Positions 17,678 through 36,304 of a stretch of DNA of 54,899 bases are shown here, piece by piece (positions within the stretch are counted from its first letter, which is position 1; each line of letters begins with the position of its first letter). Under the pieces are notes generated by a model, which worked only from the letters and a program-made list of their open reading frames with translations, ran no database searches and was not told where the DNA came from. Position numbers and translations under genes: made by a program. Origin of the DNA: Bacteroidales bacterium (GTDB lineage Bacteria > Bacteroidota > Bacteroidia > Bacteroidales > UBA1715); the NCBI GenBank assembly GCA_027858745.1, contig JAQICB010000144.1:1-54899 (forward strand), in the 5' to 3' direction.

Positions 17678-18361
17678 ATGGAAACAAAAAAATCCCCTCG
17701 CGTTAATCTCGAAAATCGTAAACGAATTTTTAGAGAAATAGGACTTATAATTGCCTTATTATCTGTGTTTATGTTGTTTGAATATAGCATTCATCCGAAA
17801 GATGTTATGGTGTCAACAGCAGATGCGTCATCATTTATGGAAGATTTAATGCCTCATACTGTTGCAGAAAAAGAGCCTCCCAAAGAAAAGATTACGAAAC
17901 CCTTGCCGGAGAAAAAAGTAATTGATCCGGTAATTACTGTAACCGACAAGAAAGAGCATGATCAGTCAGATATGCTTATTGATTATGGCTTACTTAATGG
18001 TCTCGATACCTTGTCGTTTGATAAAAAAGCAGATAAAAATGAATCTGCTTATAGATTTTCAGAGAAAAGACCCCAATTCCCGGGTGGTTATAAAGCTTTG
18101 ATGGAATTTGTAGATAAGAATACAAAATTGACTCCGGAATTATTGGAATTGGGAATAAGCGGGAGGGTTGTTGTTAAGTTTATAGTAGACAAAAGCGGTA
18201 AAGTTTTAAAACCTGTTATATTAGAAGCTCCAACAAAATTTCACGAAAAAAGTGTTTTAGAAATGATATCTCAAATGCCCGATTTTATACCCGGTGAACA
18301 GGGGGGTGAAAAAGTGTCGGTATATGTTAACTTGCCGGTTGAATTCGAAATTAAAAATTAA
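17678..18361 (+). CDS. Energy transducer TonB-like protein, copy 1
   Basis: 227 residues: a short cytoplasmic N-terminus, one membrane helix (IGLIIALLSVFMLFEY, about 22-37), a linker with Pro/Lys-rich KEPPKEKITKPLPEKK, and a C-terminal TonB-type domain starting at FPGGYKALMEF. It is clearly a duplicate of the next gene. This copy has lost the conserved tyrosine-proline motif at the start of the C-terminal domain (KLTPELLELG) and has a shorter proline-rich segment, so it may have specialised. It probably spans the periplasm to contact outer-membrane receptors, energised by ExbB/ExbD. Confidence 0.8.
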   Translation: METKKSPRVNLENRKRIFREIGLIIALLSVFMLFEYSIHPKDVMVSTADASSFMEDLMPHTVAEKEPPKEKITKPLPEKKVIDPVITVTDKKEHDQSDMLIDYGLLNGLDTLSFDKKADKNESAYRFSEKRPQFPGGYKALMEFVDKNTKLTPELLELGISGRVVVKFIVDKSGKVLKPVILEAPTKFHEKSVLEMISQMPDFIPGEQGGEKVSVYVNLPVEFEIKN

Positions 18362-18462
18362 ATTGTTTACAAAATCAAAATTTTAATAAAAGTTGTATGA
18401 TTTTACAAGCAATATTTATTATTTTAGCCGAAAGTTTGATTTTATTCAAATAATTTTGCTTT

Positions 18463-19146
18463 ATGGAAATTAAAAAGACAGAAAAAGCGAGTTTAGAATC
18501 GCGGAAAAGAATATTTACCGAAATAGGTTTTATAATTGCTTTATTAATTGTGTACGGTGCGTTTGAATATACAACACGGCCTAATGATATTAGTGAGTTG
18601 AGTGGAAACGCACTCGAGGTGCCCGATCAAGAGATGGCTGAGGTGACTCGTGAACCGGAACCGCCAAAACCCGAAATTAATGAGCCGGAACCTGAAACTC
18701 CCGAAGCTCCTGAAGTTGTGGAAACGGATGATGAAGACGAGGATCAGTCGGATGTCTTTAATCCACGCGAAGAACCTGCTCCCTTAGATGATTTCACCTT
18801 TGATGAACCCAAAGAAGAAAAAGAACAAATTTTCCAACGGGTCGAAAAAATGCCTTCATTTCCCGGTGGTGATGCTGCTCTTTTACGTTATATAAATTCA
18901 CATCTTGAGTATCCTAACGAGGCAATTGAAATGCAAATTCAAGGTATGGTTATGGTACAATTTATTGTCGATGAAAATGGAAATGCGGTAAAGCCGAAAA
19001 TTTTAAAAGGAGTTTCGACGCATCTTGATAAAGCAGCTTTGGATGTAATAAAAAAACTACCGAAATTTTCTCCTGGTGAACAAGCCGGGAAAAAGGTAAA
19101 GGTGTATTATAGAGTACCTATTCATTTTCAGTTACAAACCCGATAA
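18463..19146 (+). CDS. Energy transducer TonB-like protein, copy 2
   Basis: 227 residues. One membrane helix (IGFIIALLIVYGAFEY) precedes a Pro/Glu-rich periplasmic linker (PEPPKPEINEPEPETPEAPE). The TonB C-terminal domain is complete: FPGGDAALLRYINSHLEYPNEA, then GMVMVQFIVDENGNAVKPKIL, LDKAALDVIKKLPKFSPGEQ and VYYRVPIHFQL. N-terminus, DEDQSDVF segment and domain order align with copy 1, showing tandem duplication. A strong terminator follows. The exb genes expected to work with it lie at 33.7-36.2 kb. Confidence 0.88.
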   Translation: MEIKKTEKASLESRKRIFTEIGFIIALLIVYGAFEYTTRPNDISELSGNALEVPDQEMAEVTREPEPPKPEINEPEPETPEAPEVVETDDEDEDQSDVFNPREEPAPLDDFTFDEPKEEKEQIFQRVEKMPSFPGGDAALLRYINSHLEYPNEAIEMQIQGMVMVQFIVDENGNAVKPKILKGVSTHLDKAALDVIKKLPKFSPGEQAGKKVKVYYRVPIHFQLQTR

Positions 19147-33539: not shown

Positions 33540-33629
33540 GGAGAGGTGGCCGAGTGGTTGAAGGCGCACGCCTGGAAAGTGTGTATACTGTGTGAAACGG
33601 TATCGAGGGTTCGAATCCCTCTCTCTCCG
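33540..33629 (+). tRNA. tRNA-Ser (anticodon GGA)
   Basis: A class II tRNA of 90 bases. The acceptor stem GGAGAGG pairs with TCTCTCC, with one G-T. D-arm GCCGAGTGGTTGAAGGC, anticodon loop CTGGAAA with GGA, a long variable arm and T-arm GAGGG-TTCGAAT-CCCTC are all visible. Discriminator is G33629, and CCA is not encoded. exbB follows 66 bases later without an obvious promoter of its own. Confidence 0.96.
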
Positions 33630-33695
33630 CACAAAGTAGTATTGTAGTAATAATAAATAATATAGTAAATCGAATTTTAATTTAATAGCATTGTT

Positions 33696-34523
33696 ATGAA
33701 AAAGTTATTTGCAGTTTTAATGGTTGTTGGATGTTTTTCAATGAACCTTTTTTCTCAACCAACAGAAGGTCAGGCCGATACTGCGGCGGTAGGTGATAGT
33801 GTGACGCAGGAAGATGCGCTTGCACAAGCTGATACACTTCAAACTGAAGTTGAAGTTGTTGATGATTCTGAAGAAGTTGTTGTAGAGAAAGGATTACATC
33901 AAGTAATTAAAGAAAAGTTTATTGAAGGTGGTGCCGGATTTATGGCTATTGTTGTTATCTGTCTTATTTTTGGATTGGCAATCGCAATTGAACGTATTAT
34001 CTACTTAAACCTTGCAACAACTAATACTGAAAAATTATTGGGTAAAGTTGAAGAAGCACTTGAAAATGGTGGTAAAGAAGCAGCTTTAGAAGTATGTCGT
34101 AATACTCCCGGTCCGGTTGCAAGTATCTTTTATCAAGGTATTAGTCGTGTAGACGAAGGTGTAGACGTGGTTGAAAAATCAGTTGTATCATATGGTAGTG
34201 TGCAAATGGGATTACTCGAAAAAGGGCTTACATGGTTGTCATTATTTATTGCACTTGCTCCTATGTTAGGTTTCATGGGTACAGTAATTGGTATGATTGA
34301 CGCATTTGACTCTATCGCTATTGCCGGTGATATTTCGCCAAACCTTGTGGCAGGAGGTATTAAAATAGCACTTATTACAACAGTTACCGGTCTTATTGTA
34401 GCAATGATTCTTCAAGTATTTTATAATTATTTACTGTCAAAAGTTGATAGTTTAACTTCTGATATGGAAGATGCTTCAATTTCTCTTGTTGATATTGTTG
34501 TTAAGTATAACGCAAAAAAATAA
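33696..34523 (+). CDS. exbB: ExbB/TolQ/MotA family proton channel protein
   Basis: 275 residues. A cleavable-looking signal (MKKLFAVLMVVGCFSMNLFSQ) and an acidic, Asp/Glu/Val-rich periplasmic extension of about 50 residues precede the core, common in Bacteroidota ExbB. Core helices are FMAIVVICLIFGLAIAIERIIYL (about 88-110), TWLSLFIALAPMLGFMGTVIGMIDAF (about 180-205) and IKIALITTVTGLIVAMILQVFYNYLLS. With ExbD it uses the proton gradient to energise TonB. First of a four-gene operon ended by a strong terminator. Confidence 0.92.
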   Translation: MKKLFAVLMVVGCFSMNLFSQPTEGQADTAAVGDSVTQEDALAQADTLQTEVEVVDDSEEVVVEKGLHQVIKEKFIEGGAGFMAIVVICLIFGLAIAIERIIYLNLATTNTEKLLGKVEEALENGGKEAALEVCRNTPGPVASIFYQGISRVDEGVDVVEKSVVSYGSVQMGLLEKGLTWLSLFIALAPMLGFMGTVIGMIDAFDSIAIAGDISPNLVAGGIKIALITTVTGLIVAMILQVFYNYLLSKVDSLTSDMEDASISLVDIVVKYNAKK

Positions 34524-34528
34524 TCATA

Positions 34529-35149
34529 ATGGATTTTAATAGAATTTTTAAAATAGTTTCAATTTCTTTATTTGCTATTGCAGCTCTCGGTATCTTTGTA
34601 TACATAGGGTATGCATCATCTAAAGATTGTTTGGGATGCTCTCTTCCAAAATGCGAAGGTGTTACTGAATCTGGTGAGGTTTATTTAAAAGCTGCCGATG
34701 AATGTGCTCGTCCGTATGCTGAAATACAAGAAGAGCAAGAACAAATAGAACAAATGAATGCCGCTATGGGATTGAGTAACGAAGGTGTTACTACCGATTG
34801 TTCGCAAGAATGTCTTTCGTATGCAGGTAATTTTATGACATTTGCTATTGTATTTGTTTTTATTGCTGGGATTTTAACTTTATTGTTTGCGGGATATAAT
34901 CTCGTTGTTAATCCTAAAAAAATCAAAGGTGTTTTGTTTGCCATTGTTGGTCTCGGAATAGCGGTGTTGATTTCATATGTGTTAGCATCTGATACTATTC
35001 CAAATATTATTGGATATGATGGGGTGATTTCACAGACTGAAGCAAAATGGGTTGAAACAACACTGTACATGTTATATATATTATTATCTGTTGCGGTACT
35101 TGGTATACTTGCATCCGGTGTTTCAAAAATTGTAAAAAATCGTAAATAA
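34529..35149 (+). CDS. Cysteine-rich four-helix membrane protein in the exb operon
   Basis: 206 residues; no family recognised. Four membrane helices at about 8-28, 101-124, 133-153 and 177-196. The first loop (about 30-100) is expected to face the periplasm and has six cysteines (34, 37, 42, 59, 91, 95), including CLGC, which lacks a heme-binding His. Helical acidic/Gln-rich stretch EIQEEQEQIEQM lies in the same loop. It sits five bases after exbB and 37 before exbD. An accessory subunit of the ExbB-ExbD complex is the natural inference from position only. Confidence 0.7.
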   Translation: MDFNRIFKIVSISLFAIAALGIFVYIGYASSKDCLGCSLPKCEGVTESGEVYLKAADECARPYAEIQEEQEQIEQMNAAMGLSNEGVTTDCSQECLSYAGNFMTFAIVFVFIAGILTLLFAGYNLVVNPKKIKGVLFAIVGLGIAVLISYVLASDTIPNIIGYDGVISQTEAKWVETTLYMLYILLSVAVLGILASGVSKIVKNRK

Positions 35150-35186: not shown

Positions 35187-35774
35187 ATGGCTCGAAGATT
35201 AGTTCCTGAAATAAATTCATCGTCAATGGCCGATATAGCTTTTATGCTGTTGATATTCTTCTTGGTAGCTACGACTATGGAAACGGATAAGGGTTTGTCT
35301 CGAACGTTACCTCCCTATGTTCCGCCTGAAGAACAAGAAGAAATTAAGGTTATTGAGAAGAATTTATTTGTTGTTTTTCTTAATAAAAATGACAATTTAA
35401 TGATAGAAAAAAAACCGGCTCATATTAATGAATTACGTGAGCGATGTGTTGATTTTTTAATGCACATGAATAATAATTCTGAAGATAATACTTATCCTGG
35501 TTATGAAACTCAAGATATTTCCATGCTTGGAGGAGGACAACAGCGTGTAACAAAAGCTATTGTGAGTATTCAAAATGATAGAGGATCTTCGTATGATAAT
35601 TATATTGAAGTGCAAAATGAGGTGGTCGCTGCATACAATATTGTACGTGATACATATGCTCGTAAGTTTTTTAATAAAAAATTCGATGATCTTAATGAGG
35701 ATGAGTATAATGCTATTAAGGAACTTATTCCTCAAAAGATTTCTGAAGCTGAACCAAAAAATATTGGAGGTTAA
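35187..35774 (+). CDS. exbD: ExbD/TolR family protein, copy 1
   Basis: 195 residues. Short N-terminus (PEINSSSMADIAFMLLIFFLVATTM) has the single membrane helix and the conserved Asp that carries protons (SMADIAF, D about 15). The periplasmic domain is longer than in classical ExbD (about 140), with a loop around 90-120 rich in Asn/Asp/Gly and Gln. The C-terminal VQNEVVAAYNIVRDTYARKFF is typical of Bacteroidota copies in this operon position. It is followed five bases later by a second exbD. Confidence 0.88.
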   Translation: MARRLVPEINSSSMADIAFMLLIFFLVATTMETDKGLSRTLPPYVPPEEQEEIKVIEKNLFVVFLNKNDNLMIEKKPAHINELRERCVDFLMHMNNNSEDNTYPGYETQDISMLGGGQQRVTKAIVSIQNDRGSSYDNYIEVQNEVVAAYNIVRDTYARKFFNKKFDDLNEDEYNAIKELIPQKISEAEPKNIGG

Positions 35775-35779
35775 TAATT

Positions 35780-36247
35780 ATGGCAAAAATTCGTAAAGAC
35801 GGGAAAAAGACCCCACCACCTATTTCAACAGCATCGTTACCGGATATTGTTTTCATGCTTTTATTCTTTTTTATGGTTTCTACTACCATGCGTGAAAGTT
35901 CTCTTATGGTAAAAAAACCTATGTTACCGCAGGCTACTGAAATTACAAAATTGGAGAAAAAATCTTTGGTAAGTAATATTTATGTAGCTCCTCCAACAAA
36001 AGAATATGAGTCTATTTATGGAACTCAACCGGTAATTCAATTAAATGATGCTATTGAGGAGGTTTCTTCTATTCCTCAGTTTATTCAAAAAGAGCGTGAA
36101 GCTCGTAATCCAAACGAACGTCCTTTGATGTCTGTCTCGCTTAAAGCTGACTCTGACACGAAAATGGGGATTATTTCTGATGTGAAAATGGAATTACGAA
36201 GAATTAATTCGTTAAAATTAAATTATGCTGCTCGTGAAAAACAGTAA
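35780..36247 (+). CDS. exbD: ExbD/TolR family protein, copy 2
   Basis: 155 residues. KTPPPISTASLPDIVFMLLFFFMVSTTMRESS has the conserved Asp of the proton path just before the membrane helix. The periplasmic part is compact and ends in ISDVKMELRRINSLKLNYAAR, resembling the TolR-type C-terminus. The pair of exbD genes in one operon may form a hetero-oligomer in the ExbB pentamer or serve different TonBs. Followed by a strong terminator. Confidence 0.88.
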   Translation: MAKIRKDGKKTPPPISTASLPDIVFMLLFFFMVSTTMRESSLMVKKPMLPQATEITKLEKKSLVSNIYVAPPTKEYESIYGTQPVIQLNDAIEEVSSIPQFIQKEREARNPNERPLMSVSLKADSDTKMGIISDVKMELRRINSLKLNYAAREKQ

Positions 36248-36268
36248 ATAACAATTGTAATATATATA

Positions 36269-36304
36269 AAAGCCGATAAATTTAATTTATCGGCTTTTTT
36301 TTTA
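36269..36304 (+). terminator. Intrinsic terminator of the exb operon
   Basis: An AAAGCCGATAAA/TTTATCGGCTTT stem (12 bp) with a six-base loop is followed by a T-run of about nine. It ends the exbB-exbD operon, and its A-rich left side could also act on the opposite strand. Confidence 0.92.

What the first reader, a model, noticed from the sequence alone, without database searches (positions are those of the whole stretch)
34529..35149. Six-cysteine membrane protein inside the exbB-exbD operon
A four-helix protein with no family I can name sits between exbB and two exbD genes with 5- and 37-base gaps. Six cysteines cluster in the predicted periplasmic loop, fitting disulfides or a metal site. 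It could be a further subunit of the proton-driven motor.
Basis: partly seen in the sequence, partly recalled or inferred. Interest (0 to 1): 0.5.

Follow-up and report, generated by a model that had tools for sequence, protein, structure and literature searches.

The report
Unnamed membrane partner of ExbBD motors
This is a small, unnamed inner-membrane protein encoded inside one type of proton-driven motor operon in many Bacteroidota, and in this bacterium's family it carries an extra loop with six conserved cysteines; it is probably an undescribed part of that motor, which could be tested directly.

Summary
Window 34529-35149 encodes a 206-residue, four-helix protein ("X") between exbB and two exbD genes, with six cysteines in a predicted periplasmic loop. 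X has no convincing Pfam or NCBIfam match and no significant solved-structure match.

X is not local to this genome. In a sample of 80 genomes of the class, 36 carry this ExbB type, and all 36 have X between exbB and exbD1 (one copy split over two frames). X is missing from the other exbBD arrangements: in 14 of 14 fetched exbB-exbD-exbD loci the exbB-exbD gap is at most 101 nt. More distant Bacteroidota have a ~90-residue, three-helix relative at the same place (15 of 19 readable loci) or nothing (4 of 19).

The cysteines are a later addition. All six are invariant in 11 of 11 family members, but 136 of 146 other X proteins have none in that region. The widely conserved part is the helical core.

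Best reading: a dedicated membrane partner of a heteromeric ExbB/ExbD1/ExbD2 motor, with a disulfide-braced loop in this family. Physical contact is inferred, not shown. ExbD1 gained one periplasmic cysteine in the same lineage, so a redox-control reading stays open but weak.

The parts
33696..34523 (+). exbB, 275 aa, the ring subunit of the motor ('type II' in this report)
   Evidence: PF01618 E 1.5e-27; three Thr columns conserved in 156 of 156 aligned ExbB
34529..35149 (+). gene X, 206 aa, four-helix membrane protein; the finding
   Evidence: same place in 36 of 36 type II operons of a class sample
34616..34822 (+). X residues 30-98: periplasmic loop with Cys 34, 37, 42, 59, 91, 95 (family-specific insertion)
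   Evidence: invariant in 11 of 11 family members; insertion columns relative to the other X proteins; 136 of 146 others have no Cys there
34817..35146 (+). X residues 97-206: conserved three-helix core
   Evidence: modelled alone at mean pLDDT 92.9; profile matches the ~90-aa three-helix relatives of other classes
35187..35774 (+). exbD1, 195 aa, axle subunit
   Evidence: PF02472 E 3.3e-18; transmembrane Asp in 156 of 156
35445..35447 (+). codon of ExbD1 Cys87, a periplasmic cysteine gained in the same lineage as the loop of X
   Evidence: C in 10 of 10 family loci, 1 of 146 others
35780..36247 (+). exbD2, 155 aa, second axle subunit
   Evidence: PF02472 E 1.6e-10; transmembrane Asp in 156 of 156
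36268..36298 (.). terminator-like hairpin (14-bp stem, T run on both strands) between exbD2 and a convergent gene
   Evidence: the count of such sites in the region (2, one per strand) is not above its shuffles (mean 1.3, sd 1.4)
17678..19146 (+). two tandem TonB_C proteins (17678-18361, 18463-19146), possible force transducers for this or the other motor; link not shown
   Evidence: PF03544; the only two TonB_C matches in the genome

Best explanation
X is a dedicated integral-membrane partner of one lineage of Bacteroidota ExbBD motors (ExbB + ExbD1 + ExbD2, 'type II'). Shown: X sits between exbB and exbD1 in this operon type, is nearly always there, and is absent from the other exbBD operon types looked at. 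Shown: the motor parts look canonical, with the transmembrane Asp in both ExbDs and conserved Thr in ExbB, while X has no conserved charged residue in its helices. Inferred: X does not carry protons itself. It packs against the ExbB ring in the membrane and is made together with it, so that it stabilises or tunes the ring around an ExbD1/ExbD2 axle. Inferred: in the window's family the six cysteines form three disulfides that brace a ~70-residue periplasmic cap grafted onto X. The motor most likely energises outer-membrane work, as ExbBD motors do, with a TonB encoded elsewhere.
For: Class sample of 80 genomes: 36 have type II ExbB (E 4.5e-89 or better, next hit 1.1e-45), and X lies between exbB and exbD1 in 36 of 36 (32 loci; L001, L027, L028, L049; L190 split over two frames). 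Phylum sample of 296: the 29 same-class genomes with ExbD2 all have X (28 by search; G198 as locus L036). X sits on the exbB strand at a median gap of 10 nt in 157 of 157 loci with a called X. Type III operons (exbB-exbD-exbD) have no room for X in 14 of 14, and exbD follows exbB within about 7 nt in 4 of 5 type I loci (read; in L205 no ExbD was called). X is single copy in 116 of 116 genomes with a match at E 1e-6 (295 searched). Purifying selection in close pairs. Conserved motor residues. X-ExbB covariation beyond within-clade shuffles (z 4.6, 0 of 60) is like that of the known ExbB-ExbD pairs (z 4.0 and 2.3).
Against: No physical evidence of binding. Residue pairs behind the covariation are scattered across compartments, so they do not look like contacts, and no non-interacting protein was available as a negative control. 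The core is poorly conserved (43% mean column identity against 61-64% for ExbB and ExbD2). 4 of 19 readable loci of other classes have the motor genes without X, so X is not always needed. No X-ExbB or X-ExbD fusion was found. No disulfide test was possible.
Confidence: 0.5

Rival explanations
1. X is an assembly or sorting factor: it helps ExbB assemble or makes sure that ExbD1 and ExbD2 pair as a heterodimer, and then leaves.
For: Gene order exbB-X-exbD1-exbD2 puts X where it would be made between ring and axle parts; fast sequence change and loss in one clade fit a helper better than a core part.
Against: Type III operons also hold two exbDs but no X, so two ExbDs alone do not need such a factor.
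Confidence: 0.22
2. Redox-controlled motor: in the window's family the CxxC / CxxxC cysteines of X exchange disulfides with ExbD1 Cys87 and so lock or release the axle according to the redox state of the periplasm.
For: All six X cysteines invariant in 11 of 11; ExbD1 Cys87 in 10 of 10 family loci and 1 of 146 others.
Against: One lineage, so in effect one event. Of 14 family-fixed rare residues in ExbB, ExbD1 and ExbD2 only this one is Cys, which chance could give. The one other carrier of the ExbD1 Cys (L172) has an X without cysteines. Most X proteins work without the loop.
Confidence: 0.07
3. The loop of X is a metal (Zn, Cu or Fe) site that senses or delivers metal to the motor.
For: Six invariant cysteines with CxxC and CxxxC spacing.
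Against: No conserved His in the invariant set; an even number of cysteines in a periplasmic loop fits disulfides as well; no metal-binding family match.
Confidence: 0.08
4. X is a passenger: an independent small membrane protein co-transcribed with the motor but not part of it.
For: Some relatives lack X (4 of 19 loci); no interaction data.
Against: 36 of 36 in the class sample, single copy, tied to one of three ExbB types, and none of the 44 type II-less genomes is among the 116 X-positive genomes (whether all 44 were in that sample is not shown).
Confidence: 0.1
5. X stands in for TonB as the part that passes force to the outer membrane, since this operon has no tonB.
For: The type III operons carry tonB (TonB_C in 3 of 3 scanned) and no X, the type II operons carry X; the two types are nearly mutually exclusive.
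Against: X has no TonB_C match, and neither the ~70-residue loop nor the loop-less X of other families can span the periplasm. Two tonB genes lie elsewhere in the window.
Confidence: 0.03

Closest known systems
ExbB-ExbD-TonB motor (E. coli type; reviewed in PMC9389320, passages seen)
   Same: exbB and exbD genes, transmembrane Asp and conserved Thr residues.
   Different: Two different exbD genes, no tonB in the operon, and an extra four-helix protein X.
TonB2 operon exbB-exbD-exbD-tonB of Riemerella anatipestifer (PMC4446302, passages seen)
   Same: One exbB of about 30 kDa and two exbD genes. The type III loci here have the same order, followed by TonB_C and a PBP-like protein.
   Different: No X between exbB and exbD in the type III loci, tonB in the operon, and a distinct ExbB (E 1e-29 to 1e-21 against the window's profile). 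That the type III loci are the Riemerella type is judged by gene order and size only.
Vibrio vulnificus TonB2 system with TtpB2, TtpC2, TtpD2 (PMC6957404, abstract and passages seen)
   Same: A precedent for extra proteins, encoded in the operon, that an ExbBD-TonB system cannot work without.
   Different: TtpB2 is given as 255 aa with a leucine zipper and TtpD2 as 425 aa with TPR motifs; X is a four-helix membrane protein. Not compared by sequence here.
Myxococcus AglR-AglQ/AglS (PMC9389320, passage seen)
   Same: One ring protein with two MotB/ExbD-like proteins.
   Different: No X-like protein mentioned in the passage seen; not compared here.
GldL-GldM of Bacteroidota (PMC9389320, passage seen)
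   Same: A Bacteroidota 5:2 proton motor.
   Different: Different ring and axle proteins; no sequence comparison was made here.

Membership tests
ExbB/ExbD-type proton motor (the operon) | ExbB-family ring protein with conserved membrane Thr residues | tested here: met
   PF01618 E 1.5e-27; three Thr columns at 100% in 156 loci
ExbB/ExbD-type proton motor (the operon) | ExbD-family axle protein with transmembrane Asp | tested here: met
   PF02472 for both exbD genes; Asp in 156 of 156 for each
ExbB/ExbD-type proton motor (the operon) | pentamer:dimer assembly driven by the proton gradient | not testable with these tools
   needs purification or structure of the complex
X as an ExbB/TolQ/MotA paralogue | match to PF01618 or to an ExbB profile | tested here: not met
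   no PF01618 match for X; profile comparison with ExbB gives probability 0.5%
X as an ExbD/TolR protein | PF02472 match, single helix with Asp | tested here: not met
   four helices, no PF02472 match, profile comparison with ExbD1 0.3%
X as a TonB/TolA protein | PF03544 C-terminal domain after one helix | tested here: not met
   no match; four helices
X as a member of a named Pfam or NCBIfam family | match over the family's curated cut-off | tested here: not met
   window X: best PF17313 13.1 bits against cut-off 25, NF041775 12 against 400. Relatives: scattered weak matches, best DUF7937 1.3e-4 (24 of 121 members at E 0.1 or better) and MdoC 1.8e-6 (2 of 121); cut-offs are not shown in those tallies
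X as a known fold | significant match to a solved structure | tested here: inconclusive
   Foldseek best E 3.6 (whole) and 2.5 (core); VIA-align best Z 6.4 and 6.7, no better than common helix packing
TonB2-type (type III) exbB-exbD-exbD-tonB operon | tonB directly after the second exbD, nothing between exbB and exbD | tested here: not met
   the window operon has X after exbB and ends after exbD2, followed by a convergent gene
Vibrio Ttp proteins | sequence relation to TtpB, TtpC or TtpD | not tested
   no sequence comparison run; sizes and motifs from PMC6957404 differ

The most novel reading that the evidence does not exclude
A widespread class of Bacteroidota proton motors has four kinds of subunit: an ExbB ring, an ExbD1/ExbD2 mixed axle and X, an undescribed ring-associated regulator. 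In the window's family X has become a redox gate that can lock the axle by disulfide exchange between its CxxC/CxxxC loop and ExbD1 Cys87.
Probability: 0.07. Interest if true: 0.8.

Novelty: new variant of a known kind. Interest (0 to 1): 0.48.

Why it matters
ExbBD motors are treated as two-protein machines plus TonB. If X is a fixed part of the type II motor, then a common motor of Bacteroidota has an undescribed component, and textbook models built on E. coli miss it. The near exclusion between the X-bearing and the tonB-bearing exbB-exbD-exbD operons (4 genomes with both of 80) suggests two alternative solutions to one task, which can be tested by deletion and swapping. The family-specific six-cysteine loop gives an easy biochemical handle: thiol trapping.

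Tried and rejected
X as a degenerate ExbB: rejected; profile comparison with ExbB gives 0.5% probability.

Cysteines as the conserved heart of the protein: rejected beyond the window's family.

Fold recognition: no significant Foldseek match for the whole model or for the core modelled alone; VIA-align rows (best Z 6.4 and 6.7) are no better than common helix packing. This shows neither a new fold nor an old one. PDB sequence search: best E 0.12.

Residue covariation to find an interface: the overall X-ExbB signal is present (z 4.6), but the top pairs are scattered across compartments and there is no negative control, so it is inconclusive. D1-X (z 1.8) and D2-X (z 2.4) are weaker. With coarser clades all six protein pairs, X included, rise to z 7.3-17.5, which shows how strongly ancestry drives this measure.

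Natural fusions of X with motor genes: none in the loci examined; open frames with X are at most 212 codons in 116 genomes.

Downstream genes as a clue to function: 52 of 63 eligible downstream genes scanned; no common neighbour. OMP_b-brl_2 was commonest (7 of 52), and TonB is not among the 25 families shown of 67. Upstream genes were listed but not scanned.

A self-against-reversed control of the X profile gave 45%, so that profile is partly reverse-symmetric; the 96.3% match to the three-helix relatives is judged against the reversed-relative controls (0.7% and 0.5%).

first gave 35 type III genomes from an incomplete list; one search replaces it with 38. labels X types by length only, and its label for L075 is wrong: the reading frame was called too long, and the gene is an ~86-aa three-helix type.

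Rows left out: L016 and L018 (matches in ~360-aa proteins outside the operon) and L003 (contig ends before exbD2) from the tree and covariation; L069, L071 and L074 (operon not readable) and L087, L110 and L132 (no ExbB on the stretch) from gene-order counts; L080 (duplicate protein); L190 (split X) from covariation.

Literature: ten searches of the open-access library listed no paper that I could see describing X; most subscription papers are not in that library, and only the listings and the passages named here were seen. The paper most likely to bear on Bacteroides TonB systems (PMC10662123) is not held.

Full report
WHAT IS THERE. The window holds an operon of four genes on the + strand: exbB (33696-34523), X (34529-35149), exbD1 (35187-35774) and exbD2 (35780-36247), with gaps of 5, 37 and 5 nt. 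A tRNA-Ser lies upstream (33540-33630), and a terminator-like hairpin separates exbD2 from a convergent gene (36268-36298; the number of such sites in the region is not above its shuffles). The exbB and exbD genes match PF01618 and PF02472. X is 206 aa with four helices, predicted with good confidence (mean pLDDT 88.4, 121-sequence alignment), and six cysteines between helices 1 and 2. The charge pattern puts both ends of X in the cytoplasm and the cysteine loop in the periplasm (read from the sequence).

X IS CONSERVED IN THIS OPERON TYPE. In the window's family X is in 11 of 14 genomes, and the 3 without X (one genus; one genome is 79% complete, one 6% contaminated) have no ExbD2 match either. 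In a phylum sample of 296 genomes, 125 have an ExbD2 relative. In the window's class that is 29 genomes, and X is found in 29 of 29: 28 by direct search, and the last, G198, when its locus L036 was read. Four further hits lie in frames of 837-908 codons and are taken as chance. The other 96 ExbD2 genomes belong to other classes; 22 of the 96 were fetched and 19 could be read. 15 of these have a ~90-residue three-helix protein at the same place and 4 have nothing there. The profile of 14 of these short proteins matches the X profile over their whole length (hhalign 96.3%, E 1.8e-9), against 0.5-0.7% for the two reversed controls. The X profile against its own reverse gives 45%, a warning about low-complexity helices.

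A CLEANER TEST STARTING FROM EXBB. An ExbB profile run on 80 genomes of the class gives three groups. Type II (the window's) is in 36 genomes at E 4.5e-89 or better; the next match is 1.1e-45. X lies between exbB and exbD1 in 36 of 36: 32 loci, and L001, L027, L028 and L049. In one (L190) X is split over two frames, which looks like a sequencing error or a broken gene. Type III (E above 1e-30, frame of at least 265 codons) is in 38 genomes. 14 of the 38 were fetched; in 14 of 14 the exbB-exbD gap is -7 to 101 nt, so there is no X. In the 3 loci scanned a TonB_C protein follows, and in the 2 scanned for the next gene a PBP-like protein. That order is the one reported for the Riemerella TonB2 operon (PMC4446302, passages seen). 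It also recalls the exbB-exbD-tonB-ABC transporter-TPR cluster reported as conserved in five Bacteroidetes (PMC4026382, passages), and probably BT2664-68 of B. thetaiotaomicron (PMC10434189, table passage; gene order inferred). Type I is the ordinary exbB-exbD pair; in 4 of the 5 such loci, exbD starts within about 7 nt of the end of exbB, and in L205 no ExbD was called. The window's genome has one type I pair (contig 146) and one type II operon.

TYPES II AND III RARELY MEET. Of 80 genomes, 4 have both, 32 only II, 34 only III and 10 neither (Fisher p 1.7e-9). Counted by family (57 families): 5, 21, 23 and 8 (p 5e-5). Ancestry is only partly removed by this, but the pattern suggests two alternative versions of one function. 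Type III carries its own tonB. The window's operon carries none; two tandem tonB genes lie 15 kb away (17678-19146) and are the only TonB_C matches in the genome. Which motor they serve is unknown.

A WIDER COUNT. An X profile of 121 sequences finds X in 116 of 295 genomes of the class at E 1e-6, one copy each and never in a frame longer than 212 codons, so there are no fusions. All 36 type II genomes are among the 116; none of the other 44 is, though the output does not show that all 44 were in that sample. Among the best 80 of 578 named public genome matches to ExbD2 (a search biased towards this operon type), 77 have both ExbB and ExbD2 on the stretch, and X was found in 77 of 77. They include Odoribacter, Sunxiuqinia, Sanguibacteroides, Alistipes, Draconibacterium, Labilibaculum and Anaerophaga.

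THE CYSTEINES ARE A SINGLE LATER ADDITION. In the window's family all six cysteines are invariant (11 of 11). Of the 36 invariant positions of X, 17 fall in the 68-residue loop, 6 of them cysteines. Of 146 X proteins outside the family, 136 have no cysteine in the corresponding region, 7 have one and 3 have two. The six-cysteine proteins form one clade (10 leaves, support 1.0) within the Bacteroidales part of the tree; its exact sister is unresolved (0.233). Loops of other X proteins vary in length and some are long without cysteines (L015 and L076). So the cap was grafted once onto an old core.

A COINCIDENT CYSTEINE IN EXBD1. ExbD1 has one cysteine in its periplasmic part (window C87) in 10 of 10 family loci and in 1 of 146 others; that one (L172) has an X without cysteines. 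Of 14 family-fixed residues that are rare elsewhere in ExbB, ExbD1 and ExbD2, this is the only cysteine. That is suggestive, but it is one event in one lineage and could be chance.

MECHANISM. Shown: both ExbD proteins keep the transmembrane Asp in 156 of 156 loci, ExbB keeps three Thr columns in 156 of 156, and X has no charged column conserved at 70% or more. Inferred: proton flow is through ExbB/ExbD as usual, and X is not a conductor. Shown: X is co-encoded, single copy, under purifying selection (dN/dS 0.03, 0.08 and 0.11 in three close pairs; 0.54 in a distant pair with dS 1.04) and tied to one ExbB type. Inferred: it binds the ExbB ring or helps to build it. Covariation of X with ExbB exceeds within-clade shuffles about as much as ExbB-ExbD does (z 4.6 against 4.0 and 2.3), but the residue pairs are not contact-like and no negative control was available, so I count this as inconclusive. 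Inferred: the six cysteines make three disulfides; the alternatives are a metal site and a redox switch.

KNOWN OR NOT. X has no convincing Pfam or NCBIfam match. The window protein's best hits are far under the cut-offs, and relatives give scattered weak hits. There is no significant structure match. Extra operon-encoded proteins that an ExbBD-TonB system cannot do without are known from Vibrio (TtpB2, TtpC2, TtpD2; PMC6957404, passages), and one ring with two axle-type proteins is known from Myxococcus AglRQS (PMC9389320, passage). X is unlike either in kind, though no sequence comparison with them was made. Ten literature searches listed no description of X that I could see. I file it as a new variant of a known kind: an ExbBD-type motor operon with an undescribed, conserved membrane protein.

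VERDICT. The cysteines, which drew attention, are the lineage-specific part; the core is the wider puzzle. Interest 0.48.

Noticed in passing
window 17678-18361 and 18463-19146: Two tandem tonB genes (PF03544), 101 nt apart, the only TonB_C matches in the genome.
   Followed up: partly
L191-L203, L208: Operons exbB-exbD-exbD, with TonB and a PBP-like protein next in those scanned, are nearly mutually exclusive with the X operon across 80 genomes of the class.
   Followed up: partly
L170 and L179: Tandem duplication of exbD genes: exbB-X-exbD1-exbD2-exbD1 (L170) and exbB-X-exbD1-exbD2-exbD1-exbD2 (L179).
   Followed up: no
window 35445-35447 (ExbD1 Cys87): A lone periplasmic cysteine in ExbD1 gained in the same lineage as the six-cysteine loop of X.
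   Followed up: partly
L059, L062, L067, L073: Four loci of other classes with exbB directly followed by exbD1 and no X; they form one clade (support 0.964).
   Followed up: partly
L096, L106, L111: MAG records titled Neomarinimicrobiota, Chlorobiota and Sphingomonadales carry the X operon and fall among Bacteroidota loci in the tree: mislabelled bins or transfer.
   Followed up: no
L190: X split over two overlapping frames in G386: sequencing error or broken gene.
   Followed up: no
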